Shown piece by piece: positions 13,982 to 49,612 of a stretch of 64,000 bases of DNA. The notes under the pieces are model-generated. The model was not told the DNA's origin. It saw only the letters and a program-made list of their open reading frames with translations, and searched no databases. How positions within the stretch are numbered: the stretch's first letter is position 1; every line of letters begins with the position of its first letter. This DNA comes from Lachnospiraceae bacterium (GTDB lineage Bacteria; Bacillota; Clostridia; Lachnospirales; Lachnospiraceae), in the NCBI GenBank assembly GCA_017940415.1, contig JAGAYR010000009.1, positions 62,001 through 126,000 on the forward strand. Reading direction: 5' to 3'. A program made the translations under genes and the position numbers.

Positions 13982-14917
13982 ATGAGCAGTTATGACGGTT
14001 ACTTGGATGTACTGGAAAATATAGAAGATATGATGAGGGCATATCAGGGCCTGTCGGCTTTTTCGAATCTTGTAAGGCTGACTTTCTTTATTCTCACCAT
14101 AATCGGCTTGTGGAATATGTATATCAAAGCAGGTGAGCCCGGATGGGCAGCACTTATTCCTTTTTACAGGACTTATGTGCTCTATAAGATCTCCGATATG
14201 AAGAAGCTGTTTTGGCTTCATCTCGGATGTATCATTGCGTCCATGGTTGTTTTCATATTCACATTTGTCAGCTTCTGGTCGCTGTTCATAAGCTCTATTT
14301 CCGGTGGTTTTTCCGAGAGTGACGTAATGACATGGCTGAGCGGTATGTTTGTGGCGTGGTTTGTGGTGATGGTCTGTGCCATCATCAGTCTTGTGCTCAG
14401 GATCATGAATGTGATAAAGCTTACCGGTGTATTTAACCTGAGCGGAGGATATGCGGTAGGTCTCTTTTTCCTGCCTGCCATTTTCTATATGATCCTCGGT
14501 TTATCCAAGAATATTTATTATAAGAACCGCAGACCCGGAATGAACGGATTTAACGGACAGAGCGGATATGCGGGGGATCCTTATGCAAATAATTATGCAC
14601 AGAATCCCTATCAGCAGAACAATTATCAACAGAATACATATCAGCAGGCGCCTTATCAGCAGAACAATTATCAACAGAATACATATCAGCAGGCACCTTA
14701 TCAGCAAAACACATATCAGCAGAATCCTTATGCTCAGAATCCTTACATGCAGAATGATTATGCGCAGAATAATAATTCTCAGGATGCTCAGGCTAAATAT
14801 GACAGTTATCAGTCATCCCAGACTGCTCAGGGACAGGCTCAGAATCCTTATGCATCACCTGACAGACAGGAAGTTTGGAATACGATTTACGACGATGACA
14901 AAAACAATCTTAATTGA
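13982..14917 (+). CDS. DUF5684-like membrane protein with Q/N/Y-rich tail
   Basis: Residues ~25-180 contain several transmembrane helices and the WAALIPFYRTYVLYKIS motif seen in DUF5684-type small membrane proteins, sometimes found near signal peptidases. From ~195 the protein becomes a low-complexity tail of NPYQQNNYQQNTYQQAP repeats (about 90 residues) made of Gln, Asn, Tyr and Pro. At DNA level a 45-bp unit is perfectly duplicated apart from one base (14609-14653, 14654-14698). Such tails are predicted to be disordered and cytoplasmic. Role unknown. Confidence 0.7.
   Translation: MSSYDGYLDVLENIEDMMRAYQGLSAFSNLVRLTFFILTIIGLWNMYIKAGEPGWAALIPFYRTYVLYKISDMKKLFWLHLGCIIASMVVFIFTFVSFWSLFISSISGGFSESDVMTWLSGMFVAWFVVMVCAIISLVLRIMNVIKLTGVFNLSGGYAVGLFFLPAIFYMILGLSKNIYYKNRRPGMNGFNGQSGYAGDPYANNYAQNPYQQNNYQQNTYQQAPYQQNNYQQNTYQQAPYQQNTYQQNPYAQNPYMQNDYAQNNNSQDAQAKYDSYQSSQTAQGQAQNPYASPDRQEVWNTIYDDDKNNLN
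14609..14698 (+). repeat. Two 45-bp tandem repeats in the Q/N/Y tail
   Basis: Units 14609-14653 and 14654-14698 differ at one base (GCGCCT versus GCACCT). They encode YQQNNYQQNTYQQAP twice and would be prone to slippage. Confidence 0.9.
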
Positions 14918-14940
14918 TTGAAAAATTCCTTATTTTTTCC

Positions 14941-14969
14941 TTGACATGAGGAATCATTTTGGATAATAT
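14941..14969 (+). promoter_or_regulatory. tRNA cluster promoter
   Basis: Consensus TTGACA (14941-14946), a 17-nt spacer and TAATAT (14964-14969) lie 20 nt upstream of tRNA-Arg. Confidence 0.85.
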
Positions 14970-14989
14970 AATCGTTGTCTGTTTTGTGT

Positions 14990-15063
<74 letters not shown>

Positions 15064-15068
15064 TTCAT

Positions 15069-15143
15069 GGTGGGTGTAGCACAGTTGGTTAGCGCGTCAG
15101 ATTGTGGTTCTGAAGGTCGAGGGTTCGAGTCCCTCTACCCACC
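15069..15143 (+). tRNA. tRNA-His (GTG)
   Basis: The extra 5' G (15069) pairs with the discriminator C, as is normal for histidine tRNA. Acceptor GTGGGTG/TACCCAC. Anticodon loop TTGTGGT gives GTG. Confidence 0.93.
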
Positions 15144-15146
15144 CTC

Positions 15147-15166
15147 ACGCCAACAGGCGTTTTTTT
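15147..15166 (+). terminator. Short terminator inside the tRNA cluster
   Basis: The 5-bp stem ACGCC/GGCGT with loop AACA is followed by a run of seven T's. It is weak, so read-through to the Gln and Lys tRNAs is possible. Confidence 0.55.
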
Positions 15167-15199
15167 ATGACTGCAGGTTGCCTGTTTCGGACCGGCCGT

Positions 15200-15271
15200 A
15201 GGGCTATCGCCAAGCGGTAAGGCACAGCACTTTGACTGCTGCACTCGTGGGTTCGAATCCCGCTAGCCCTG
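15200..15271 (+). tRNA. tRNA-Gln (TTG)
   Basis: Acceptor AGGGCTA/TAGCCCT. The anticodon loop CTTTGAC in a CAGCA/TGCTG stem gives TTG. Confidence 0.93.
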
Positions 15272-15276
15272 TATAT

Positions 15277-15349
15277 GAGACACTAGCTCAGTCGGTAGAG
15301 CACTTGACTTTTAATCAAGTTGTCGAGGGTTCGATTCCCTCGTGTCTCA
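15277..15349 (+). tRNA. tRNA-Lys (TTT), prophage attachment gene
   Basis: Acceptor GAGACAC/GTGTCTC. The anticodon loop CTTTTAA in a CTTGA/TCAAG stem gives TTT. The part from 15306 onward is duplicated at 49556-49600, so the gene was reconstituted by phage DNA on integration and remains intact. Confidence 0.95.
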
Positions 15350-15350
15350 C
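15306..15350 (+). repeat. attL
   Basis: A 45-bp sequence identical to 49556-49600. It covers the anticodon arm to the 3' end of tRNA-Lys. Confidence 0.93.
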
Positions 15351-15357
15351 TAAAGCG

Positions 15358-15404
15358 AAAAACGCTGCAAATCCAGTAATTTCAAGGGTTTGCAGCGTTT
15401 TTCT
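15358..15404 (+). terminator. Terminator after tRNA-Lys, inside the prophage end
   Basis: The 14-bp stem AAAAACGCTGCAAA/TTTGCAGCGTTTTT replaces the original tRNA terminator, which is now displaced to 49613. Confidence 0.85.
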
Positions 15405-15452
15405 TTTCACTGAAAAAGTAATTCTAAGTAGTTAAAAGTAACTAAAAGTAAA

Positions 15453-15509
15453 TGTAAGCAACGTGTAAGCAAGGGGGTCTATGACCAAGATGTAAGCAAA
15501 TTGTAAGCA
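15453..15509 (+). repeat. Probable integrase arm-type binding repeats, left arm
   Basis: TGTAAGCA occurs four times, at 15453, 15464, 15491 and 15502, in two closely spaced pairs. The same octamer occurs at 49497 on the right arm, with the near match TGTAATCA at 49508. Tyrosine integrases with an N-terminal arm-binding domain bind such direct repeats; the assignment is inferred. Confidence 0.6.
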
Positions 15510-15594
15510 AATTCGACCATTTTGTTCTATTGTGATATAATATTTCATCATGTTGGATCTCTATAGATAAAAGCAGATTATCGAGGTATAAGAT

Positions 15595-16518
15595 ATGCCT
15601 AATTGGGGTGAGGTACTTGCAGAATTACAGGGGATGAAGATTGAAAATCCCCTTGATACATTGCGCCATAAATATCTTGGGATAATGAATAAATATACCG
15701 GAAGGAATGTTATTGCTTATTATTCAGGATTTCTCCAGAAACCGGCATCAAATACATCAATAGACGATAACGACAAAAACGCTTTAATGCAGGCGGTTTA
15801 TGGGTTAGATAAGAGCAAAGGATTGGATCTTATACTTCATACTCCTGGAGGAAACACCGCGGCTACGGAATCTATTGTCAATTATTTGCATTCGATGTTC
15901 GGAAAAGATATTAGGGCTTTTATTCCTCAAATGGCAATGTCTGGTGGCACTATGATTGCTTTGGCCTGTAAGGAGATAATCATGGGAAAACAGTCGAATA
16001 TAGGACCAATTGATCCTCAGTACGGTGGCGCATCCTGCGCTGGAGTTATAGAAGAATTCAATAAGGCTATAGATGAGATTGCAAAGAAGCCTTCTTCTGT
16101 TATGCTTTGGCAGACAATCATTTCGAAATATCACCCTACTTTTTTGGGAGATTGTCAAAAGGCCATAGATTGGTCCGAAAAAATGGTTAAGACATGGCTT
16201 GTTGGTAATATGTTTGATGGGGAGCTTGATGCCGACCAAAAAGCAGAAAATATTGTAAGCCAACTGGGGAGTCATATTGTTACTAGCACCCACTCACGGC
16301 ATATTCATATTGATGAGTGCAAAAATATGGGAATAAAAGTAAAAGAGTTGGAGAATCTGGATAAAAGAAATCTTGAAGGTTGTAAAGATTTACAAGATTG
16401 TGTTTTGACCATTCACCATTCATATATGCATACCTTTTCAAATTCCACAGCAGTAAAGATAGTTGAGAATCATAATGGAAATGCTATGATAATGAATTCG
16501 GCACAGATAAAGGCCTGA
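15595..16518 (+). CDS. ClpP/SppA-fold serine protease (SDH-protease-like) cargo protein
   Basis: The 307-residue soluble protein has the crotonase-like fold of SppA/SDH proteases. It shows LDLILHTPGGNTAATESIV (oxyanion region, ~80-98), FIPQMAMSGGTMIALAC with the expected nucleophile Ser (~120), and GPIDPQYGG. No signal peptide or membrane helix is seen. It lies between attL and the integrase, on the opposite strand to integrase, where phages often carry accessory genes. Codon use is more AT-rich than the flanking chromosome. A role in lysogenic conversion or phage defence is possible but is only inferred from position. A 66-residue ORF follows. Confidence 0.75.
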   Translation: MPNWGEVLAELQGMKIENPLDTLRHKYLGIMNKYTGRNVIAYYSGFLQKPASNTSIDDNDKNALMQAVYGLDKSKGLDLILHTPGGNTAATESIVNYLHSMFGKDIRAFIPQMAMSGGTMIALACKEIIMGKQSNIGPIDPQYGGASCAGVIEEFNKAIDEIAKKPSSVMLWQTIISKYHPTFLGDCQKAIDWSEKMVKTWLVGNMFDGELDADQKAENIVSQLGSHIVTSTHSRHIHIDECKNMGIKVKELENLDKRNLEGCKDLQDCVLTIHHSYMHTFSNSTAVKIVENHNGNAMIMNSAQIKA

Positions 16519-16534
16519 TTGGGAGAGAAATGCA

Positions 16535-16735
16535 ATGAAAGATTATGATCAGATCTATAAAGATTTAGGAATTGCGATTGTTCCACTTAGTGACAATTAT
16601 GATCCGGAAATATATGGTCGCGAATTGATGAGAGGCCTGAACAGCAATGAAGAGATTTCTTATTCCTCGGCAACAAATTATGCACCCAAGACGTTGCTTA
16701 CAGAAAAAGAAGATAGCAAATTAACCTTTGTATAA
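16535..16735 (+). CDS. Small hypothetical protein paired with the cargo protease
   Basis: The 66-residue ORF starts 16 nt after the protease gene behind GGGAGAGAAATGCA. It is acidic, without membrane segments or recognised motifs. The tight spacing and shared terminator indicate co-transcription, so it may be a partner or substrate of the protease. Confidence 0.6.
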   Translation: MKDYDQIYKDLGIAIVPLSDNYDPEIYGRELMRGLNSNEEISYSSATNYAPKTLLTEKEDSKLTFV

Positions 16736-16744
16736 ATAGATAGT

Positions 16745-16775
16745 AAACGGTCAGGCTTTAAGCTTGACCGTTTTT
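16745..16775. terminator. Bidirectional terminator between cargo genes and integrase
   Basis: The stem AAACGGTCAGGCT/AGCTTGACCGTTT (one G-T) has a 3-nt loop and A/T tracts on both sides. It separates convergent genes. Confidence 0.8.
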
Positions 16776-17913
16776 ATAATTTTAAAGCATTAGATATAGC
16801 CCCGGCAGCGTCCTCTTTTTCTTCCTTGATATGAGAATACACATCAAGAACCATCTTTTCGGAATCACCCAAGATCTTGGCAATCTTCTTTGTAGAAATA
16901 GCCGGGATCTGATAACACAGCTCTGTGCAGAAGTTGTGCCTGAATATATGGGCTGTCAGGTCGGTTATCTGCTTTTCTGATTTATTCTTTTTGGCATTCG
17001 GATTGTACCCGATGGCAATATTAAGGGATGTGATTATACTTTCCCACATTCTTCTGTACGCTGTAGCGGTCATGATAGCCCCGTCCCGGGTTTTGAAGAG
17101 ATAATCATCACATTTATCCACATATGTTCTTATTTCGACAATAAGAGCGTCTGAGAGGGGAATTTCCCTAAAACCATTAGCGGATTTGGGAGAATACTTA
17201 ATAGAGGACCCGGATAACAGGAACTGAACATCCTTACTGATCGAAACCACTTTTTTCTCAAAATCAAAGTCCTCCCGCATTAATGCCAGAGCTTCCCCAC
17301 GTCTGACACCTGTGTAGAACAGGATCTTTATAAAGGCATTTTTCTTATCATCAAGCCGGACTTTTTTGATGGCTTGCTTCTCAAGGTCCGTAAGTGGCCT
17401 TTTTTCTTTCTTTTTATATGCCGGCAGTGAAACATCCTCCAATATATCTTCGAGTGCGTTCTTGGGCAGATAATGCTCCCTCACGGCACTTTTGATGATC
17501 TGCCTGAATGTAAGGTCTATGATCTGACAGGTTCGGGGTTTCCCTGAATTGGCATTAATGAGCTGTTGGAGATGTCTGTGCTTTATATCCTGCAGTAAAA
17601 CGTTCTGAAATGAACTGAAATGACGTCTGATGCATCCCTCATACATTTCTCTTGTCTGAGGCGCTCTGGAGCTTTTGGAAGTATTTACCCATTGCATAGC
17701 ATAGTCATAGAATGATATATTGCCGGCCAGAGTGGCTCCATTTGATTCGATGGCAGTCTTAAGCTGCCGGATCTTTTCCTCCAGGTCTTTAGATGACTTC
17801 TTTGAACTTACCCATTTTCTGTGCTTGGAACCGTCTGCATTGTACGTTCCATCCCAGGCAAGGGTGTACCATTCTTTCCTTTCTTCGTTGTAAGTATACT
17901 TAGCTTTAGCCAT
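16774..17913 (-). CDS. int: Phage tyrosine integrase
   Basis: The 379-residue recombinase has an N-terminal arm-binding domain (~1-50), a SAM-like core-binding domain (~60-165) and a catalytic domain. Catalytic residues visible are Arg204 in TGVRRGEAL, His322 and Arg325 in HIFRHNFCT, and Tyr359 in DVYSHI. The usual LGH is LGD (residues 348-350), a tolerated variation in some family members. It inserts the phage into tRNA-Lys. The start has TGAGG 8 nt upstream. Confidence 0.95.
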   Translation of the reverse strand: MAKAKYTYNEERKEWYTLAWDGTYNADGSKHRKWVSSKKSSKDLEEKIRQLKTAIESNGATLAGNISFYDYAMQWVNTSKSSRAPQTREMYEGCIRRHFSSFQNVLLQDIKHRHLQQLINANSGKPRTCQIIDLTFRQIIKSAVREHYLPKNALEDILEDVSLPAYKKKEKRPLTDLEKQAIKKVRLDDKKNAFIKILFYTGVRRGEALALMREDFDFEKKVVSISKDVQFLLSGSSIKYSPKSANGFREIPLSDALIVEIRTYVDKCDDYLFKTRDGAIMTATAYRRMWESIITSLNIAIGYNPNAKKNKSEKQITDLTAHIFRHNFCTELCYQIPAISTKKIAKILGDSEKMVLDVYSHIKEEKEDAAGAISNALKL

Positions 17914-17992
17914 AACGATACCTCATTGAGAAAAATAGAGAATTAAGATAGAATATGTTCGTTGCCGCCTCCGACAATGGCAAAGGAAGGAG

Positions 17993-18109
17993 GTGAGTGC
18001 TATAGAGCTTATTGTGAGTTTTTTAATTTCTGTTGTGGCAAGCATAGTCGCCTACTATGTATGCAAATGGTTGGACAGAGATGACCAAGGCAACCAGCCT
18101 GAGGATTAA
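17993..18109 (+). CDS. Small single-helix membrane peptide, start uncertain
   Basis: The open frame encodes ELIVSFLISVVASIVAYY followed by a basic/aromatic CKWLDRDDQGN tail. This resembles short membrane peptides found next to integrase or repressor genes in Firmicute elements, some suspected type I toxins. The strong ribosome site AAGGAAGGAGG overlaps the first GTG (17993). The best-spaced codon is ATA at 18002, where relatives would be expected to have ATG; another in-frame GTG is at 18014. So translation may be impaired or non-canonical. A strong terminator follows. It is divergent from integrase. Confidence 0.5.
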   Translation: MSAIELIVSFLISVVASIVAYYVCKWLDRDDQGNQPED

Positions 18110-18133
18110 GCCACCTCGCAAAAACGGAATAGA

Positions 18134-18169
18134 AAACCCCGGAGACTGCCATCTCCGGGGTTTCGTTTT
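18134..18169 (+). terminator. Strong terminator after the small peptide gene
   Basis: The 12-bp perfect stem AAACCCCGGAGA/TCTCCGGGGTTT has loop CTGCCA and is followed by CGTTTTG. Confidence 0.85.
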
Positions 18170-18251
18170 GCTATAGACATTATTGTGAGTTCAATTAACT
18201 TTCGCCTACAAGCAATCTACCATATCCCGGAACCTAAATCAATATTTTTTT

Positions 18252-18277
18252 AGTTCGCAGGAGTTCGTAGCAGTTCA
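18252..18277. repeat. Three AGTTC repeats phased every 10 bp
   Basis: AGTTC begins at 18252, 18262 and 18272, with a fourth at 18291, between integrase and the repressor gene. The one-turn spacing suggests a cooperative DNA-binding site. Protein unknown. Confidence 0.4.
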
Positions 18278-18298
18278 TAACCGTTTATATAGTTCATT

Positions 18299-18655
18299 TT
18301 ATCCTGCAGATGCAGCAGTTTCTTTTTCCTCGATCTTAAGAATCCTGCGAACCATTTCTTTATCAACAGAATCCGCATCATCATACGCCCTAGCAACTAT
18401 GAGGGCCTCTTCAGAGAGAATCCCATCAGTGGCAGCAGGAGTAGGGTCTATTAAATCAGACTTCTTAACATGGAAGTAATCAGCAAGCTTTTGAATTTTC
18501 CCCATACGAGGGAGTGCAATACCCTGACACCATGTATTAAAGGTTTGAGGCGATACTCCAATTGCGTCGGCAACTTCTTTTTGAGTTTTCCGGCGTTCAT
18601 TTAAAAGGTTATTAAGATTGTTTGAAAAAATGCTGTTCTGTGTAGGTATAGCCAT
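18299..18655 (-). CDS. CI-like XRE-family repressor
   Basis: The 118-residue protein has an N-terminal helix-turn-helix (QKEVADAIGVSPQTFNTWCQG) and a short acidic C-terminal region (~70-118) for oligomerisation. The start chosen (MAIPTQ) has GAGGG 8 nt upstream; an 11-residue upstream extension is possible but lacks a site. It is divergent from the Cro-like gene across the switch region, so it is the likely lysogeny repressor. It is short and has no peptidase domain, so induction would not use LexA-type self-cleavage. Confidence 0.8.
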   Translation of the reverse strand: MAIPTQNSIFSNNLNNLLNERRKTQKEVADAIGVSPQTFNTWCQGIALPRMGKIQKLADYFHVKKSDLIDPTPAATDGILSEEALIVARAYDDADSVDKEMVRRILKIEEKETAASAG

Positions 18656-19127: not shown

Positions 19128-19325
19128 ATGGAATACCCCAAGGAAGTGATGAGAATGACAGAACTTAGGAAGATGGGCTTTCCACAGGACTGGTTACTGT
19201 CAATATTCAGGATGCGCGGACAGAAGATCGCCTGGAAGAGTGGTCCGAAACCCAACAGTCCGATCATGTTCGATACGAAGGAACTTGAAAAATTCAGACG
19301 CGCATCATGCGTTGCTGAACGGTGA
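19128..19325 (+). CDS. Small Xis/AlpA-like DNA-binding protein
   Basis: The 65-residue protein starts after GAAAGGAGGCACAC. The MTELRKMGFPQDWLLSIFR helix pair and the KPNSPIMFDTKELEKFRR end are typical of small winged-helix excisionase-like proteins widespread in Firmicute phages. Could be excisionase or an early regulator; the distance from attP does not decide it. Confidence 0.6.
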   Translation: MEYPKEVMRMTELRKMGFPQDWLLSIFRMRGQKIAWKSGPKPNSPIMFDTKELEKFRRASCVAER

Positions 19326-19326
19326 A

Positions 19327-19342
19327 GTTGCACCGGTGCAAC
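19327..19342. repeat. 16-bp perfect palindrome, copy 1
   Basis: GTTGCACCGGTGCAAC, just upstream of the ribosome site of the SleB-like gene. The same sequence occurs at 24977, 27167 and 33822. Confidence 0.9.
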
Positions 19343-19353
19343 AGGGAGGACAG

Positions 19354-19971
19354 ATGAAACACGCAGCATTTATCCTGGCAACACTCTTATTAGCTGCAGC
19401 GACCATAGCAGCAGGCGTAGGTTCTTACAGATCGCATGATTATCACCTTCAGACCATGCCTCACGATACACCGATGATCATTTGTGAGATTGTGGAGCCC
19501 CCGGCTTTAGAAGAAACGGTTCGGGATATCGAAGAACCGGTACAGGAAGACGAACATAAGGAACAGTTTATTCCACCGGATCTTCCTATGATCAGAGAAG
19601 ACACGTTCGTGAATCTGACTTATGAAGAGCAGGATCTGCTCGTTAGTGTGGCTATGGCAGAGGCGGAAGGTGAGGACTCGGTTGGGAAGACTCTTGTGAT
19701 GATCACAGTACTGAACAGGACACAGGAATATTCCGCTCCTGTAGGAGAGATCATTTATGCCAAGAGCCAGTTTTGTACTTCAAGAATGGGAATACAGCCC
19801 GGCGAGGACTGCTACGAAGCTCTTGGAATGGTCCTTGACGGATGGAATGAATCCTACATTGAAGGAGATTGGGATCATACCAAAAAGATCCTGTGGTTCA
19901 GCGCAGACGGATATCCGCCGTATGGTGAGCCCTTATTCAGATATGGCGGACATTATTTCAGCGGAATATGA
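19354..19971 (+). CDS. SleB/CwlJ-like cell wall hydrolase
   Basis: The 205-residue protein has an N-terminal membrane anchor or signal (FILATLLLAAATIAAGVG), a Pro/Glu-rich linker (~45-85) and a Hydrolase_2 domain (~90-205). The domain starts with EEQDLLVSVAMAEAEGED and contains GKTLVMITVLNRTQ, the SleB signature. The family cuts peptidoglycan glycan strands. The start is set by AGGGAGGACAG. Its early-module position suggests a role other than lysis, which the GH25 enzyme provides. Confidence 0.8.
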   Translation: MKHAAFILATLLLAAATIAAGVGSYRSHDYHLQTMPHDTPMIICEIVEPPALEETVRDIEEPVQEDEHKEQFIPPDLPMIREDTFVNLTYEEQDLLVSVAMAEAEGEDSVGKTLVMITVLNRTQEYSAPVGEIIYAKSQFCTSRMGIQPGEDCYEALGMVLDGWNESYIEGDWDHTKKILWFSADGYPPYGEPLFRYGGHYFSGI

Positions 19972-20754: not shown

Positions 20755-21591
20755 TTGTACACGAAAGTAACCTATGACCTTGGAGAGGTCAGAGAGATCC
20801 AAAAATATTACCCGGCAAACTATGGAGCTCCGGGATGTCCCCGAAAGGAAAAGAGAAAAAAGACTCCCGAGGAGATAAAGAAGCAGAATGAGACGAATAA
20901 GGTCCGAAAGGTTCAGAGGCTTATCCTTGCGAACTTCACTGAGGGAGATATCCACCTGAATCTGACCTATAGAAAAGACCTCAGACCGGACACACTTGAA
21001 GAGGCGGTTGCCCAAAGGGCGAAGTTTCTCAGAGATCTGAAGAGGGCATACAGGAGAGCAGGCCCCGACCTCAAATATATTGGTGTCACAGAGATCGGGT
21101 CCAGAGGAGCGGTTCATCATCATATTGTGATCAATAATCCGGATGAGCTGAATGTCATGAAGGTGATCCAAAAGATCTGGCCATACGGTCAACAGTATCA
21201 GACCCCGTTATACGAAGAAGGCGAGTATGAGCAGCTCTCCTCATATCTGATGAAGGATGAGACCAAGGAGGAGATCACCGGGACTTCATATACCAGCTCC
21301 AGGAATCTTATAAGGCCCGAACCGGTGAGAGAGAAGATCCTGCATAAGAGGTGGCGGGATCCTCCGAAAGTTCCAAAAGGGTGGGAAATGATCAAGGACA
21401 CATTGTTCAACGGGGTCAATCCTGTGACGGGATATCCATATCAACGCTATATGCTCAGGAGAATACATGAGAGTCAACATATACATGTATCAGACGATAC
21501 GCGGAGGAAGAAAACAACAGGGGTACGGGATATTCGTGCTGGAAGCGGACATGAAGGAGAGTGTTACGAAGACCCTCCGGATAAGGTTTGA
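20755..21591 (+). CDS. HUH-type replication initiator (G2P/Rep-like)
   Basis: The 278-residue protein starts at TTG behind GGAGGGTGATC. Its core reads HLNLTYRKDLRP (~63), then GAVHHHIVINN with the His cluster 121-123 that forms the HUH metal site of rolling-circle replication endonucleases. The catalytic Tyr cannot be assigned securely. It would nick the origin to start phage replication. No helicase, primase or SSB is recognisable nearby. The C-terminal end overlaps the next gene by 125 nt, so the last ~40 residues may be non-essential or the result of a frameshift. Confidence 0.7.
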   Translation: MYTKVTYDLGEVREIQKYYPANYGAPGCPRKEKRKKTPEEIKKQNETNKVRKVQRLILANFTEGDIHLNLTYRKDLRPDTLEEAVAQRAKFLRDLKRAYRRAGPDLKYIGVTEIGSRGAVHHHIVINNPDELNVMKVIQKIWPYGQQYQTPLYEEGEYEQLSSYLMKDETKEEITGTSYTSSRNLIRPEPVREKILHKRWRDPPKVPKGWEMIKDTLFNGVNPVTGYPYQRYMLRRIHESQHIHVSDDTRRKKTTGVRDIRAGSGHEGECYEDPPDKV

Positions 21592-25761: not shown

Positions 25762-26328
25762 ATGAAGATAATCAGAAAAACAGAAATAGATACAAATATC
25801 CTCGAAGTCGGAGATCAGATGGAGATTGAACTTTCCGGATTAGGAAAATTCACAGCAACTGTTCACAGAGTAACGGATCAGGGAGCACTGATCATCTTTG
25901 ATGACTGTGTAACCGAAAGACCCATGAATGAAGACGATACAAAAGATGGAGGCTTCTGGGACTCGGACCTGTGTAAGTGGATGAATGAGGAACTGATAGA
26001 AGCATTTCCGCAGGAAATCGTACCTGCCATGCATGTATATGAAAATGGTTCCAGGTTAAGGATCCCGACCTATGGAGAAATGTTCGGCCATGATGATTAT
26101 TACTGCAGATTTGAGCACGATAAAGATACCCGGCTTCCTTTGATGGCAGATAGAAAGAACCGGATATGCATGAGCCCCGAAGATGAATATTGCTGGTACT
26201 GGCTTCAGAACAGATATCGCGGTGTGGGCTCCGCGGCGTACTTTGCCTTTGTCACCTCCAGCGGCAATGCGAACCGCTACAACGCTTCCTACTCTTATGG
26301 CGTCCGCCCGGCTTTCGTAATCGAGTGA
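25762..26328 (+). CDS. Second DGR target: lectin-fold (DUF6273-like) variable protein
   Basis: The 188-residue protein starts after AAGGAGAATAATC. Its C-terminal ~36 residues (RGVGSAAYFAF to YGVRPAF) are encoded by a variable repeat matching the template at 46047-46146. The rest (ending in EYCWYWLQNRYRG) has the look of DUF6273/C-type-lectin-fold proteins used as DGR targets. No signal or membrane segment is seen. It lies in the early module between a zinc-finger gene and an HNH gene, not with the tail genes, so it may be an intracellular or lysogeny-expressed variable binder; that role is inferred. Confidence 0.85.
   Translation: MKIIRKTEIDTNILEVGDQMEIELSGLGKFTATVHRVTDQGALIIFDDCVTERPMNEDDTKDGGFWDSDLCKWMNEELIEAFPQEIVPAMHVYENGSRLRIPTYGEMFGHDDYYCRFEHDKDTRLPLMADRKNRICMSPEDEYCWYWLQNRYRGVGSAAYFAFVTSSGNANRYNASYSYGVRPAFVIE
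26218..26317 (+). repeat. DGR variable repeat VR2
   Basis: Aligned to the template at 46047-46146 without gaps. There are 13 differences, all at template adenines (25 adenines in this part), and none at the 75 other positions. Homology stops abruptly on the 5' side at 26218, so VR2 is 18 bp shorter than VR1. It sits at the 3' end of the variable gene. Confidence 0.95.
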
Positions 26329-26336
26329 TCTTTAAT

Positions 26337-26357
26337 CTCCGCCCCTCGTGGGCGGAG
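26337..26357 (+). promoter_or_regulatory. DGR hairpin after VR2
   Basis: An 8-bp stem CTCCGCCC/GGGCGGAG with loop CTCGT begins after a 19-nt gap from VR2. It has the position and size of the hairpin that promotes DGR retrohoming in phage BPP-1. Its 3' arm runs into the ribosome site of the next gene. Confidence 0.85.
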
Positions 26358-26368
26358 GAAGGAAAGAA

Positions 26369-26707
26369 ATGAAATCAGTTATGCATAACAAAGAAGACGG
26401 TACCTGTTACCTGTGTATGATGCTCCATTCTGATTATCAGAGACGGGTCAACCTTGAAGAGCATCACGTTTTCATGGGCCCGAATAAAAAGAACTCGGAG
26501 AGATACGGCATAAAAGTGTATCTCTGTCACGAACATCATACCGGATCAAAGGAAGCTGTCCATGTCAATTATGAGGTCTGCAGAAGGCTTCAGGCAGAAG
26601 GCCAGAAGACATTTGAAATGGCATACCCGAACAAGAGCTTCATAAAGGTATTCGGGAAGAATTATTTAGAGCACACCTCCGAGCAGGAGAGTATATCACG
26701 GAAATAA
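26369..26707 (+). CDS. HNH-like zinc protein (NinG/Rap-type)
   Basis: The 112-residue protein shows CYLC (~14), LEEHHVFMGPNKKNSERYG and VYLCHEHHTGS, a zinc-bound HNH-like arrangement common in phage early regions. It is probably a structure-specific or nicking nuclease in recombination or packaging. The start ATG follows GGAGGAAGGAAAGAA, which partly overlaps the VR2 hairpin. Confidence 0.7.
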   Translation: MKSVMHNKEDGTCYLCMMLHSDYQRRVNLEEHHVFMGPNKKNSERYGIKVYLCHEHHTGSKEAVHVNYEVCRRLQAEGQKTFEMAYPNKSFIKVFGKNYLEHTSEQESISRK

Positions 26708-44491: not shown

Positions 44492-45334
44492 ATGGCAGAT
44501 ATAAGAATAACCGATCTGGTTAATACGTCAGAACCTATAGACCTTGAATCACAGTACCTGATGATGGATAACGGAACGATATCACGAAAGGTATCTGCAG
44601 GAAAACTGATCAAGGCATCGTTTCCCCTGAACAGCGGATACAGAAATGGAATATACAGAGGCAAGAATCTTGGCACATCCGTCACTTCTGCACAGTGGGC
44701 TGCAATATCCTCCGGAACCTTTGATGATCTTTTTATCGGAGATTACTGGGTGATAGGTGGTGTTACCTGGAGGATTGCTCATTTTGATTATTGGCTAAAT
44801 TGCGGAGACGTAAACTGTACAACTCATCATGTGGTGATAGTACCGGATTCGAACCTGTATAGTGCGCAAATGAATACCGAAAACGTGACTACGGGAGGAT
44901 ATTATAATTCTGCTATGCGAGGCGGAGCTGATTATCCGACCGGTGGTAATCTGGCAAATGCAAAGACGGCGATCGATAATGCCTTTGGGTCTTCCCATAT
45001 CCTGTCACACAGAGAATTGCTTACAAATGCCACATCAAACGGAAATGCTTCTGGATGGGCATGGTACGATTCAACCGTAGATCTTATGAGTGAAGTTATG
45101 GTATACGGGCATCTTGCCTGGTCTGTCGGTGGAAAAGGATATGAGACCGGAATAGATAAAGAACAGTTGGCACTTTTCAGGCTTGATCACAGCAGGATAT
45201 GTAACCGTGCGTACTGGTGGCTCCGCGGTGTGGGCTCCGCGGCGTACTTTGCCCTTGTCGACTCCTACGGCTTTGCGGCCAACTACAGCGCTTCCTACTC
45301 TCTTGGCGTCCGCCCGGCTTTCGCAATCAAATGA
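44492..45334 (+). CDS. DGR target 1: lectin-fold variable tail protein (Mtd-like)
   Basis: The 280-residue protein begins MADIRITDLVNT, a phage attachment helix-strand module. The C-terminal domain (from ~60) has the DUF6273/C-type-lectin pattern: YWVIGGVTWRIAHFDYWL, HHVVIVPDS, then WWLRGVGSAAYF. The last ~40 residues are encoded by VR1. Variable codons encode Y, Y, L, D, S, Y, F, A, N, Y, S, Y, L. It probably displays changing receptor-binding surfaces at the tail tip. Confidence 0.9.
   Translation: MADIRITDLVNTSEPIDLESQYLMMDNGTISRKVSAGKLIKASFPLNSGYRNGIYRGKNLGTSVTSAQWAAISSGTFDDLFIGDYWVIGGVTWRIAHFDYWLNCGDVNCTTHHVVIVPDSNLYSAQMNTENVTTGGYYNSAMRGGADYPTGGNLANAKTAIDNAFGSSHILSHRELLTNATSNGNASGWAWYDSTVDLMSEVMVYGHLAWSVGGKGYETGIDKEQLALFRLDHSRICNRAYWWLRGVGSAAYFALVDSYGFAANYSASYSLGVRPAFAIK
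45206..45323 (+). repeat. DGR variable repeat VR1
   Basis: Aligned without gaps to the template 46029-46146 (offset 823). There are 18 differences, all at template adenines (27 in total), and none at the 91 other positions. Confidence 0.97.
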
Positions 45335-45342
45335 TCTTTAAT

Positions 45343-45363
45343 CTCCGGGCCTCGTGCCCGGAG
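45343..45363 (+). promoter_or_regulatory. DGR hairpin after VR1
   Basis: An 8-bp stem CTCCGGGC/GCCCGGAG with loop CTCGT, starting after 19 nt exactly as at VR2. The stem differs from the VR2 stem by paired changes that keep it intact. Confidence 0.87.
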
Positions 45364-45389
45364 AAATACTTACGCAGGAGATATGTAAA

Positions 45390-46025
45390 ATGTCAAATGT
45401 TCCACTAAGCCGTCGGAAGAAGTCGAGATTTGAGGCAGAGCATCAGTTTTACCGATTGAGGGATTCTGTAACATTACTTATGCTTCAGGATTTTGGTTTT
45501 TCTCCCGAGAAATATGAAAAGCAGATAGAAAGATACAGGCAGACGCATAATGGCGCTTCTAACGTTGAAGAAGTGGTTGCCAGATGGGAGAAGAAATCAG
45601 ACTCTTTTAGCAGGTGGTTTATTGATAAAGAATGTGATGCAGTCATAAATATTCTCCGGAATATAGAATCGGAGTTCACATTTGGAAATTCCATATATCC
45701 TTCTGATACGCCTGCAAAGATTTTCGAGTATCTTGAGAGAAGAAAACATATTAATGCAGCAATTTCGAATTGTTATATCTTAAAACAGGAATTACAGTAT
45801 ATTATCCGGGTGTTGCCCTTGGATATGAATAAATTCGCAAGATTTTCTGAAATGATTGATCTGCAGATAGTTTTATTTAAGGGCGTTAGACAATCTGATA
45901 ACAGATTCTTAAAAGCAAAGAAAACAGATCCGAAAGATATTATAAAACCTATATCTGAACTCTCTGAATCAGTACTGCTTATCTTAAACCGCTTAGGTTT
46001 TATAGATAAAGAGGGTAGTCTTTGA
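45390..46025 (+). CDS. Avd-like DGR accessory protein
   Basis: The 211-residue helical protein starts behind CAGGAGATATGTAAA. A basic N-terminus (SRRKKSRFEAEHQF) is followed by helices (RLRDSVTLLMLQDFG, RKHINAAISNCYILKQELQYII, DIIKPISELSESVLLIL) resembling the four-helix bundle of Avd, which binds the reverse transcriptase and template RNA. It is longer than the ~125-residue BPP-1 Avd; a central segment (~50-120) seems inserted. It ends 3 nt before the template repeat. Confidence 0.75.
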   Translation: MSNVPLSRRKKSRFEAEHQFYRLRDSVTLLMLQDFGFSPEKYEKQIERYRQTHNGASNVEEVVARWEKKSDSFSRWFIDKECDAVINILRNIESEFTFGNSIYPSDTPAKIFEYLERRKHINAAISNCYILKQELQYIIRVLPLDMNKFARFSEMIDLQIVLFKGVRQSDNRFLKAKKTDPKDIIKPISELSESVLLILNRLGFIDKEGSL

Positions 46026-46028
46026 ATA

Positions 46029-46146
46029 CGTGCGAACTGGTGGCTCCGCGGTGTGGGCTCCGCGGCGAACTTTGCCAATGTCAACAACAACGGCAATGCG
46101 AACAACAACAACGCTTCCAACTCTAATGGCGTCCGCCCGGATTTCG
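46029..46146 (+). repeat. DGR template repeat (TR)
   Basis: A 118-bp copy that donates sequence to both variable repeats. It is rich in AAC/AAT codons in the target frame (14 sites), the classical design by which adenine mutagenesis gives many residues but no stop codons. GC-rich ends (GGCGTCCGCCCGG on the right) mark the homology boundary. Confidence 0.96.
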
Positions 46147-46331: not shown

Positions 46332-47495
46332 ATGGAAATTATAGCAGATATGAATGTGCTATATGATGCGTTTAAAGCATCTATGAAAAGCAGTTCCTGG
46401 AAAGAAGAGCCGCAGAAATTTGAAACGGACTTCTTATCACAGATAGCAATACTGCAGAAAGAATTACTTGAGGGAACCTATCGAACCACACCCGGAACGG
46501 AATTTACTCTTCATGAAAGAGGCAAGATCCGACATATTCACGGTAGCAGAATGAGGGACAGGGTTGTGAGGCATGCGCTGTGCGATCATGTTATCGGTCC
46601 TTCTCTTGAAAGATATCTTATATACAACAACGGAGCATCACAAAAGGGGAAGGGCATAGATTTTGCAAGGAGGATGTTTGAAAGAGATCTTCATAATTTC
46701 TATCTGGAGTACAAAACTAATGACGGCTATGTTGGGTTCATGGACTTTTCTAAATTCTATGATAATATCCGCCATGATCGTATAAAGGAAATGATATGCC
46801 CCAGGATAGACGGATTTTCGGCATCTGTTCTTTCTGAAATAATCGATTCTTTCGCAGTGGATGTATCATTTATGACAGATGAAGAATATTCCGAATGCCT
46901 GGATCATAAATTTAACTCCATTGATTATTATCAGAATATTACTCCGGAAATGAAGACCGGTGATAAATATATGCATAAGTCCGTGGATATAGGAGATCAG
47001 ACATCGCAGAATATTGGGATATTTTTCCCGACTCCGATAGACAACTTTATCACTATAGTCAGAGGACATAGACGCGTCGGCCGATATATGGATGGCATAT
47101 ATATCATTGATAGGGACCGGGAACACATCGAAGAGACCTTTCAAGGCGTAAAGAAAAAGGCATCTGAGCTCGGCATATTTATAAATGAAAAGAAAACTCG
47201 TATCTGCAGATTGTCAGATACGTTTATTTATTTACAATTTAAATATTTCCTTACAGATACGGGCAAGGTTGTAAAGAAGATAAATCCCAAGTCTCTTACG
47301 CGACAAAGAAGAAAGCTTAAGAGCTATAAAAGATTATTCGACAGTAAAAGAATTGCATATGAGTCGATAAAGCAATCATATAAATCCTGGATGGGCAGCT
47401 ATGCAAAATATATGTCCAAAAAGCAGATAAACAATATGAAATCATTATATATTTCGCTTTTTAAGGAGGATCCGAGATGGAAGAATACACATTGA
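46332..47495 (+). CDS. DGR reverse transcriptase with YMDG active-site motif
   Basis: The 387-residue enzyme has RT motif A (FMDFSKFYDNIRHD; Asp138) and the DGR-specific motif IGDQTSQ (220-226, form IGxxxSQ). Motif C reads RYMDGIYII: residues 252-255 are Y-M-D-G where YxDD is expected, a change that one A-to-G transition (GAC to GGC, 47094-47096) would explain. Downstream INEKKTRI and thumb regions are normal. It would copy the template RNA with errors at adenines. Activity of this copy is doubtful. Confidence 0.92.
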   Translation: MEIIADMNVLYDAFKASMKSSSWKEEPQKFETDFLSQIAILQKELLEGTYRTTPGTEFTLHERGKIRHIHGSRMRDRVVRHALCDHVIGPSLERYLIYNNGASQKGKGIDFARRMFERDLHNFYLEYKTNDGYVGFMDFSKFYDNIRHDRIKEMICPRIDGFSASVLSEIIDSFAVDVSFMTDEEYSECLDHKFNSIDYYQNITPEMKTGDKYMHKSVDIGDQTSQNIGIFFPTPIDNFITIVRGHRRVGRYMDGIYIIDRDREHIEETFQGVKKKASELGIFINEKKTRICRLSDTFIYLQFKYFLTDTGKVVKKINPKSLTRQRRKLKSYKRLFDSKRIAYESIKQSYKSWMGSYAKYMSKKQINNMKSLYISLFKEDPRWKNTH

Positions 47496-49555: not shown

Positions 49556-49600
49556 GACTTTTAATCAAGTTGTCGAGGGTTCGATTCCCTCGTGTCTCAC
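49556..49600 (+). repeat. attR
   Basis: A 45-bp copy of the tRNA-Lys 3' end, identical to 15306-15350. The bases before it do not continue the tRNA, so it is a remnant. Confidence 0.93.
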
Positions 49601-49612
49601 TTGAATAATACT

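What the first reader, a model, noticed from the sequence alone, without database searches (positions are those of the whole stretch)
26218..26317. Second, remote variable repeat about 20 kb away in the early module
A gene among replication-region genes ends in a 100-bp repeat with 13 adenine-only differences from the template. DGR targets are usually close to the RT or in tail genes. Here one template appears to serve a tail protein and a probably non-virion protein, which could be a diversified intracellular or lysogen-surface factor. VR2 lost the 5' 18 bp of homology, so the two targets have different 5' junctions.
Basis: partly seen in the sequence, partly recalled or inferred. Interest (0 to 1): 0.9.

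Follow-up and report, generated by a model that had tools for sequence, protein, structure and literature searches.

The report
Second diversified gene of prophage retroelement
A prophage's mutation-making retroelement rewrites not only a tail-region protein but also a small protein encoded among its early genes, and otherwise almost identical relatives differ there, so in this phage lineage the second target works; phages with two such targets are already in print.

Summary
VR2 (26218-26317) differs from the TR (46047-46146) at 13 of 100 sites, all among the TR's 25 adenines. It is the 3' end of a 188-aa DUF6273 gene (25762-26328) inside the early gene array of a 34.25-kb prophage flanked by 46-bp repeats at tRNA-Lys.

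Two viral contigs with 18 differences over 14.1 kb have 17 of them in VR2, all at TR adenines. In three lineages 59 of 75 adenine sites vary, against 1 of 200 others. VR2 follows its own phage's TR at 188 of 189 informative cells. VR1 and VR2, but not the TR, are followed by a GC-rich hairpin.

So VR2 is a real second DGR target in this lineage. That it is an intracellular diversified binder is inferred from gene position only. In the window's own copy the RT reads YMDG where 25 of 25 typed relatives read YxDD, so it may now be idle. Distal second targets, DUF6273 ones included, are published; this is a new, well-supported member, with some relatives carrying two early targets.

The parts
15306..15351 (+). 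left att repeat, 3' part of tRNA-Lys(ttt) 15277-15350
   Evidence: 46-bp exact repeat; tRNA
49556..49601 (+). right att repeat; element 34,250 bp
16774..17913 (-). integrase
   Evidence: phrog_1, 2.4e-50
20755..21591 (+). replication initiation protein
   Evidence: phrog_3584 1.3e-54; PF23343 8.5e-17
25762..26328 (+). VR2 target gene, 188 aa, DUF6273; ATG 11 nt after the stop of the gene before it, with AAGGAG ahead
   Evidence: PF19789 5.9e-12; phrog_21980 1.7e-51 over 186 of 188 aa; sequence
26218..26317 (+). VR2
   Evidence: 13 A-only differences from TR
26337..26357 (+). hairpin after VR2: 8-bp GC-rich stem, 5-nt loop CTCGT
   Evidence: (DNA fold z -3.45)
26369..26707 (+). next gene, 112 aa, phrog_7566, unknown function
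   Evidence: 1.8e-28
44492..45334 (+). VR1 target gene, 280 aa, DUF6273 at its C-terminus, at the end of the tail genes
   Evidence: PF19789 2e-5
45206..45323 (+). VR1 (118 bp)
   Evidence: 18 differences, all at TR A
45342..45364 (+). hairpin after VR1: 9-bp stem, 5-nt loop CTCGT
   Evidence: (z -3.61)
45354..46025 (+). accessory-protein candidate between VR1 and TR (ORF bounds; true start may be downstream)
   Evidence: conserved in the same place in related cassettes, 28-90% identity; no similarity to BPP-1 Bbp7
46029..46146 (+). TR
46332..47495 (+). DGR reverse transcriptase, 387 aa; YMDG at the YxDD motif
   Evidence: phrog_1423 4.9e-53; 24% to BPP-1 Brt, E 1e-15

Best explanation
The prophage carries one diversity-generating retroelement with two target genes. 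Shown by sequence: TR copies are written, with changes only at adenines, into VR1 at the 3' end of a tail-region gene and into VR2 at the 3' end of a 188-aa DUF6273 gene in the early array; each target has its own GC-rich hairpin just downstream and the TR has none. Shown in relatives: VR2 is rewritten repeatedly and independently. Inferred: RT plus accessory protein make adenine-mutagenised cDNA from the TR transcript and home it to VR2 in trans, recognised by the shared 3' end and hairpin; the VR2 protein is made early in the lytic cycle, stays in the infected cell (no virion neighbours), and works as a diversifiable binder of something variable met inside the cell, most likely a host defence protein or a competing phage's product (about 50%; receptor binding or another role otherwise). 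In the window's own copy the RT motif is altered, so present activity is doubtful.
For: 13 of 13 differences at A, 75 of 75 other sites kept. Contigs G97/G98: after a divergent 2.6-kb block (41 differences), 18 differences in 14.1 kb, 17 in VR2, all at A. Three lineages: 59 of 75 A sites variable, 1 of 200 others. VR2 keeps its own TR's base at 188 of 189 cells (21 columns, 9 representatives picked from 12 records). Hairpin 4-13 nt after the stop in 35 of 36 genes tested, many of them near-duplicates; stems differ in sequence but pair, loop mostly CTYGT; fold z -3.45 and -3.61 at the VRs, -0.80 at the TR. TR, near VR and distal VR together on 13 of 17 records scanned, plus window and G98. Early position: DNA polymerase before it and helicase after it in Fontainebleau, methyltransferase before and Erf after in Shimadzu; PcfJ-like gene, phrog_15077 gene and HNH-like gene around it here. 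Residues at AAY codons: 0 Pro of 218, Tyr 1.8x, Gly 3.2x over uniform.
Against: No expression, localisation or structure evidence. RT of this copy reads YMDG. VR2 was identical in 9 of 16 close pairs (one pair being the same record twice). Five RT relatives found by RT alone show only one VR, among them a 60-kb contig, so the second target is not obligatory. The hairpin loop is 5 nt, not the 4-nt GRNA of BPP-1. No PADLOC match for the VR2 protein, so nothing direct ties it to defence. No neighbour is constant across the families seen.
Confidence: 0.75

Rival explanations
1. VR2 is a frozen duplicate: a copy made long ago by the DGR or by recombination, no longer rewritten.
For: The window's RT has an altered catalytic motif; 9 of 16 close pairs have identical VR2.
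Against: Adenine-only variation between otherwise identical relatives; VR2 follows its own TR; no non-A change at 75 sites here. It could hold for this copy since the RT change, not for the lineage.
Confidence: 0.08
2. The VR2 protein is a virion component after all (minor decoration or tail-tip protein encoded away from the tail genes), so both targets serve adsorption.
For: Both targets are DUF6273 and their variable residues have spectra that are not clearly different (P 0.056); DUF6273 occurs in proteins described as receptor-binding tentaclins (PMC10743442, passages).
Against: VR1 protein has extra N-terminal sequence that VR2 lacks; VR2 gene sits among early genes in unrelated module orders.
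Confidence: 0.2
3. The VR2 protein acts in the lysogen, as a superinfection-exclusion factor or at the cell surface.
For: The element is an integrated prophage; in three related records the early targets stand next to DUF6353 genes with hydrophobic stretches (reading them as membrane proteins is by eye).
Against: The gene lies in the middle of a + strand array downstream of the cro-like gene, opposite to the repressor, so lysogenic expression is not expected; DUF6353 genes are not its neighbours here.
Confidence: 0.2
4. The hairpins are only RNA elements (terminator or translation control) unrelated to homing.
For: They lie between a stop codon and the next ribosome-binding site.
Against: No T run follows (sequences); the same hairpin follows VR1 and VR2, in different operons, and not the TR; BPP-1 requires such a structure (PMC3240598, abstract and passages).
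Confidence: 0.15

Closest known systems
Faecalibacterium phages Lelie and CP11 (PMC11792537; sections 30 and 31 read, other passages seen)
   Same: One DGR, two variable regions, a large and a small target, both with DUF6273, variation at both regions in CP11 relatives.
   Different: Whether their small target is homologous to this VR2 protein over its length was not tested (sequences not at hand); hairpins, concerted evolution and early-gene position are not discussed in the sections seen.
Quimbyvirus DGR (PMC8008677; passages)
   Same: Two VRs, the second in a gene away from the structural module, taken as non-structural and defence-related.
   Different: Bacteroides phage, RT in three overlapping frames, second target on the opposite strand in a defence island; none of that here.
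Four gut prophage species with a second distal VR (PMC12629997; passages)
   Same: Second VR far from the RT cassette in inducible prophages.
   Different: [quoted passage not shown] here no such neighbour, though Shimadzu fits.
Bordetella phage BPP-1 DGR (PMC3240598, passages; record AY029185)
   Same: RT homologous (24%, E 1e-15), order target - accessory gene - TR - RT, GC-rich hairpin after VR.
   Different: One target (mtd); 4-nt loop; accessory protein and target without detectable sequence similarity to those here.
Acutalibacter phage Fontainebleau and Roseburia phage Shimadzu
   Same: Both hold TR, near VR and a distal VR in an early-region homologue annotated 'hypothetical protein'.
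   Different: 39% and 33% identical proteins; other neighbours. PMC10197239 (passages) names Fontainebleau among 13 induced prophages and, by that term search, does not mention a DGR.

Membership tests
Diversity-generating retroelement (DGR) | TR/VR pair differing only (or nearly) at TR adenines | tested here: met
   VR1 18 of 18 and VR2 13 of 13 differences at A
Diversity-generating retroelement (DGR) | DGR-type reverse transcriptase next to the TR | tested here: met
   phrog_1423 4.9e-53, homologous to Brt, 186 bp after the TR
Diversity-generating retroelement (DGR) | intact YxDD catalytic motif | tested here: not met
   RYMDG in this copy; RY[MT]DD in 25 of 25 loci typed, 4 of 29 loci not typable
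Diversity-generating retroelement (DGR) | repeated adenine-specific rewriting of VR2 | tested here: met
   met in relatives; not testable for this copy
Diversity-generating retroelement (DGR) | accessory protein (Avd) gene | tested here: inconclusive
   conserved ORF in the right place, no similarity to Bbp7
BPP-1-type target hairpin | 7-10 bp GC-rich stem 3' of VR, 4-nt GRNA loop | tested here: not met
   stem of 8-9 bp met at both VRs; loop is 5 nt CTCGT
DUF6273 (PF19789) | Pfam score above the curated cut-off | tested here: met
   VR2 protein 46.2 bits, VR1 protein 24.9, cut-off 23.5
DGR variable protein with C-type lectin fold | C-type lectin fold with variable residues on one face | not testable with these tools
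   structure prediction off; profile against Mtd gave nothing
Two-target phage DGR with a distal VR | second VR outside the RT cassette, from the same TR | tested here: met
Two-target phage DGR with a distal VR | second target next to counter-defence genes | tested here: not met
   no PADLOC match in 6 neighbouring or nearby genes scanned besides the repressor and RT; no methyltransferase among them

The most novel reading that the evidence does not exclude
DUF6273 proteins of the early region form a dedicated class of phage-encoded, cytoplasmic, DGR-diversified binders, a kind of intracellular antibody used against variable host defences or rival phages, kept across phages of several Clostridia families, with some phages (G108, G119, G120) running two early copies beside the tail target.
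Probability: 0.4. Interest if true: 0.85.

Novelty: new member of a known kind. Interest (0 to 1): 0.58.

Why it matters
Diversification of tail proteins is understood as a search for receptors. A second target that is rewritten from the same template but lies among early genes suggests that some phages also diversify a protein acting inside the cell. The family has a host-cultured, inducible member (Fontainebleau in Acutalibacter muris), so what the second protein binds can be tested directly. The records also show that one TR can serve up to three genes.

Tried and rejected
Frozen duplicate: rejected for the lineage, left open for this copy. Chance repeat: rejected. Further VRs in the window or host assembly: none of length. 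Relatives of the TR in 59 genomes of the host's genus, family and order: only the host itself. VR2-protein relatives in 97 such genomes: 3, host included, the other two at 30-31%; L021 and L022 from these gave no A-only repeat. Solved structures for the VR2 family: one match, E 0.045, not significant. Rfam, 24000-48500: none. Plasmids: none. NCBIfam: none for the VR2 protein. Group L067/L069/L072/L073/L077: 23 of 24 A sites but also 16 of 63 other sites vary; its members seem to use different TRs, and I dropped it from the 59/75 and 1/200 count. Of 17 VR2/RT-locus pairs, 11 gave one uninterrupted A-only match of at least 61 non-A sites, 3 were broken by non-A mismatches (L051, L053, L076), 3 gave none (L048, L071, L077: contig cut short or RT on another contig); for L074 and L075 the TR lies on another contig of the assembly. 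L058 (frame cut early) had no hairpin found and L071 was too short, so 35 of 36. First att searches missed the repeat because the region started too far right; one search found it. A search of ORFs hid VR2 genes of G110 and G122 behind long antisense frames; those two maps were not used. Residue spectra are not corrected for relatedness or mutation bias. Literature: searches; none of their listings showed a paper on this early DUF6273 family as such; the main Shimadzu paper (recalled, not held) was not seen.

Full report
What is there. VR2 and the TR match at 87 of 100 sites, and the 13 differences are all at TR adenines; a random placement would do this with probability 7e-10. VR1, 823 bp upstream of the TR, shows 18 of 18 differences at adenines over 118 bp. 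VR1 and VR2 differ from each other at 14 sites, all TR adenines, in the same reading frame. Nothing else of length in the assembly matches the TR.

The element. A 46-bp exact repeat at 15306 and 49556, the left copy being the 3' end of a tRNA-Lys gene, bounds 34,250 bp. Inside are an integrase, a leftward HTH repressor-like gene, a rightward HTH gene, a replication initiator, the VR2 gene, HNH-like genes, terminase, portal, capsid, tail tube, tape measure, the VR1 gene, the accessory candidate, TR, RT and endolysin. The VR2 gene starts 11 nt after the preceding ORF with AAGGAG ahead of its ATG, so it is probably co-transcribed with early genes; no expression data exist here. VR2 and TR are 19.7 kb apart in the prophage and 14.3 kb through the att junction.

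The protein. 188 aa; DUF6273 above Pfam's cut-off; phrog_21980, unknown function, over nearly its whole length. In a relative, DUF6273 covers 142 residues end to end, so I take it to be a single domain. It resembles the VR1 protein only in the last 65 residues.

Is VR2 active? Viral contigs G97 (16,778 bp) and G98 (35,309 bp) carry homologues 60% identical to the VR2 protein. They differ at 59 of 16,779 aligned positions: 41 in a 2.6-kb block near their RT end, then 18 in the remaining 14.1 kb, of which 17 lie in VR2, all at adenines of G98's TR. Family-wide, of 16 pairs with at most 2 differences in about 2.4 kb outside VR2, 7 differ inside it at 11-20 sites and 9 do not at all; the nine come from four clusters, one being the same record twice. 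In three lineages (L008, L052, L014 groups) 59 of 75 adenine sites vary and 1 of 200 others; for the L052 group the TR of a related phage was used, since its own contigs hold none. A fourth group was dropped and is told in Tried and rejected.

Concerted evolution. Across nine representatives, 21 columns are non-A in every TR and differ among TRs. VR2 carries its own phage's TR base in 188 of 189 cells although it lies kilobases away. That is what repeated TR-to-VR2 copying predicts and what an old frozen duplicate does not.

Target hairpin. 4-13 nt after the stop codon there is a GC-rich hairpin with a 5-nt (once 6-nt) loop in 35 of 36 family genes tested, with 0-12 of 200 shuffles reaching it; many genes are near-duplicates. 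In the window the VR1 and VR2 stems differ in sequence by paired changes while the loop CTCGT is kept; no T run follows; the TR has no such hairpin. In BPP-1 a hairpin after VR is required, its stem sequence is free and its loop is not (PMC3240598). The BPP-1 loop is 4 nt GRNA, so this is alike in principle, not identical.

How widespread. Scans gave 31 viral loci and 4 genome loci, and 2 of 50,697 phage records, Fontainebleau and Shimadzu, whichever of three family members was the query. An RT domain was found in 18 of 35 of the records or genomes behind the loci (in some genomes on another contig). Of 17 records scanned for copies, 13 hold TR, a near VR and a distal early VR; the other four are short or partly fetched (G118, G119, G130, G134). 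Fetched parts: 60,000 bases of G108, G110 and G112 each, 40,000 of G114 and G119, 40,000 of 91,930 of G135, the rest whole. Three of the 13 (G122-G124) are nearly the same phage. Because these records were found through the VR2 protein, the figure does not measure how common second targets are; five records found through the RT show only one VR.

Two early targets. G108, G119 and G120 hold two early DUF6273 genes, 2-3 kb apart, both with TR-like VRs; in G108 each is followed by a DUF6353 gene. G119 has no TR or RT on its contig.

The caveat on this copy. The RT reads RYMDG where 25 of 25 typed loci read RY[MT]DD; 4 of 29 loci could not be typed. The second aspartate is part of the catalytic motif (recalled), so activity may be lost or reduced, or the MAG may be wrong here. 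Since 75 of 75 non-A sites still match in both VRs, any loss is recent.

Function. Inferred only. The constant features are early-region position, a variable C-terminus rich in Tyr, Gly and Asn and without Pro (0 of 218), and strict upkeep by the DGR. Neighbours are not constant: DNA polymerase and helicase in Fontainebleau, methyltransferases and Erf in Shimadzu, DUF6353 genes in G108, PcfJ-like and HNH-like genes here. I hold an intracellular binder of a variable partner as most likely (about 50%), with a virion role (20%) and a lysogen role (20%) as rivals.

Prior work. A second, distal VR is in print: Quimbyvirus (PMC8008677, passages), four inducible gut prophages (PMC12629997, passages), and Lelie, Lagaffe_CP and CP11 (PMC11792537, sections 30 and 31). 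The last names DUF6273 in small and large targets. The tentaclin paper (PMC10743442, passages) places DUF6273 in a C-lectin domain. Roux et al. (PMC8144416, passages) state that their survey would miss remote targets. So the kind is known; new here, to judge from the searches listed, are the within-lineage proof of VR2 rewriting, the concerted evolution, the paired hairpins, and the records with two early targets.

Noticed in passing
window 46332-47495: RT reads YMDG at the catalytic YxDD motif; 25 of 25 typed relatives read YxDD. Intact copies exist in relatives.
   Followed up: partly
G108 (L100 5900-6481 and 7870-8418), G119 (L114 8051-8632 and 10240-10788), G120 (17713-18345 and 14799-15389 on the contig): Two early DUF6273 genes, each with a TR-like variable end, so up to three targets for one TR.
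   Followed up: partly
L061 / L087 (G120) and L079 (Fontainebleau): The RT matches in two pieces in different frames, so these copies may be frameshifted or misassembled.
   Followed up: no
G98 reversed 15362-17954: 41 of the 59 differences between G97 and G98 lie in this 2.6-kb block, which looks like a recombined stretch.
   Followed up: no
window 15595-16518: SDH-type ClpP-like serine proteinase gene (PF01972, 5.6e-23) between the left att repeat and the integrase.
   Followed up: no
window 19240-19971: Cell-wall hydrolase domain (PF07486, 5.3e-6; SleB-like) encoded in the early region.
   Followed up: no
genus of the host: 26 of 31 genomes of the genus have DUF6273 matches, several in long proteins; the domain is common in these hosts apart from phages.
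   Followed up: no
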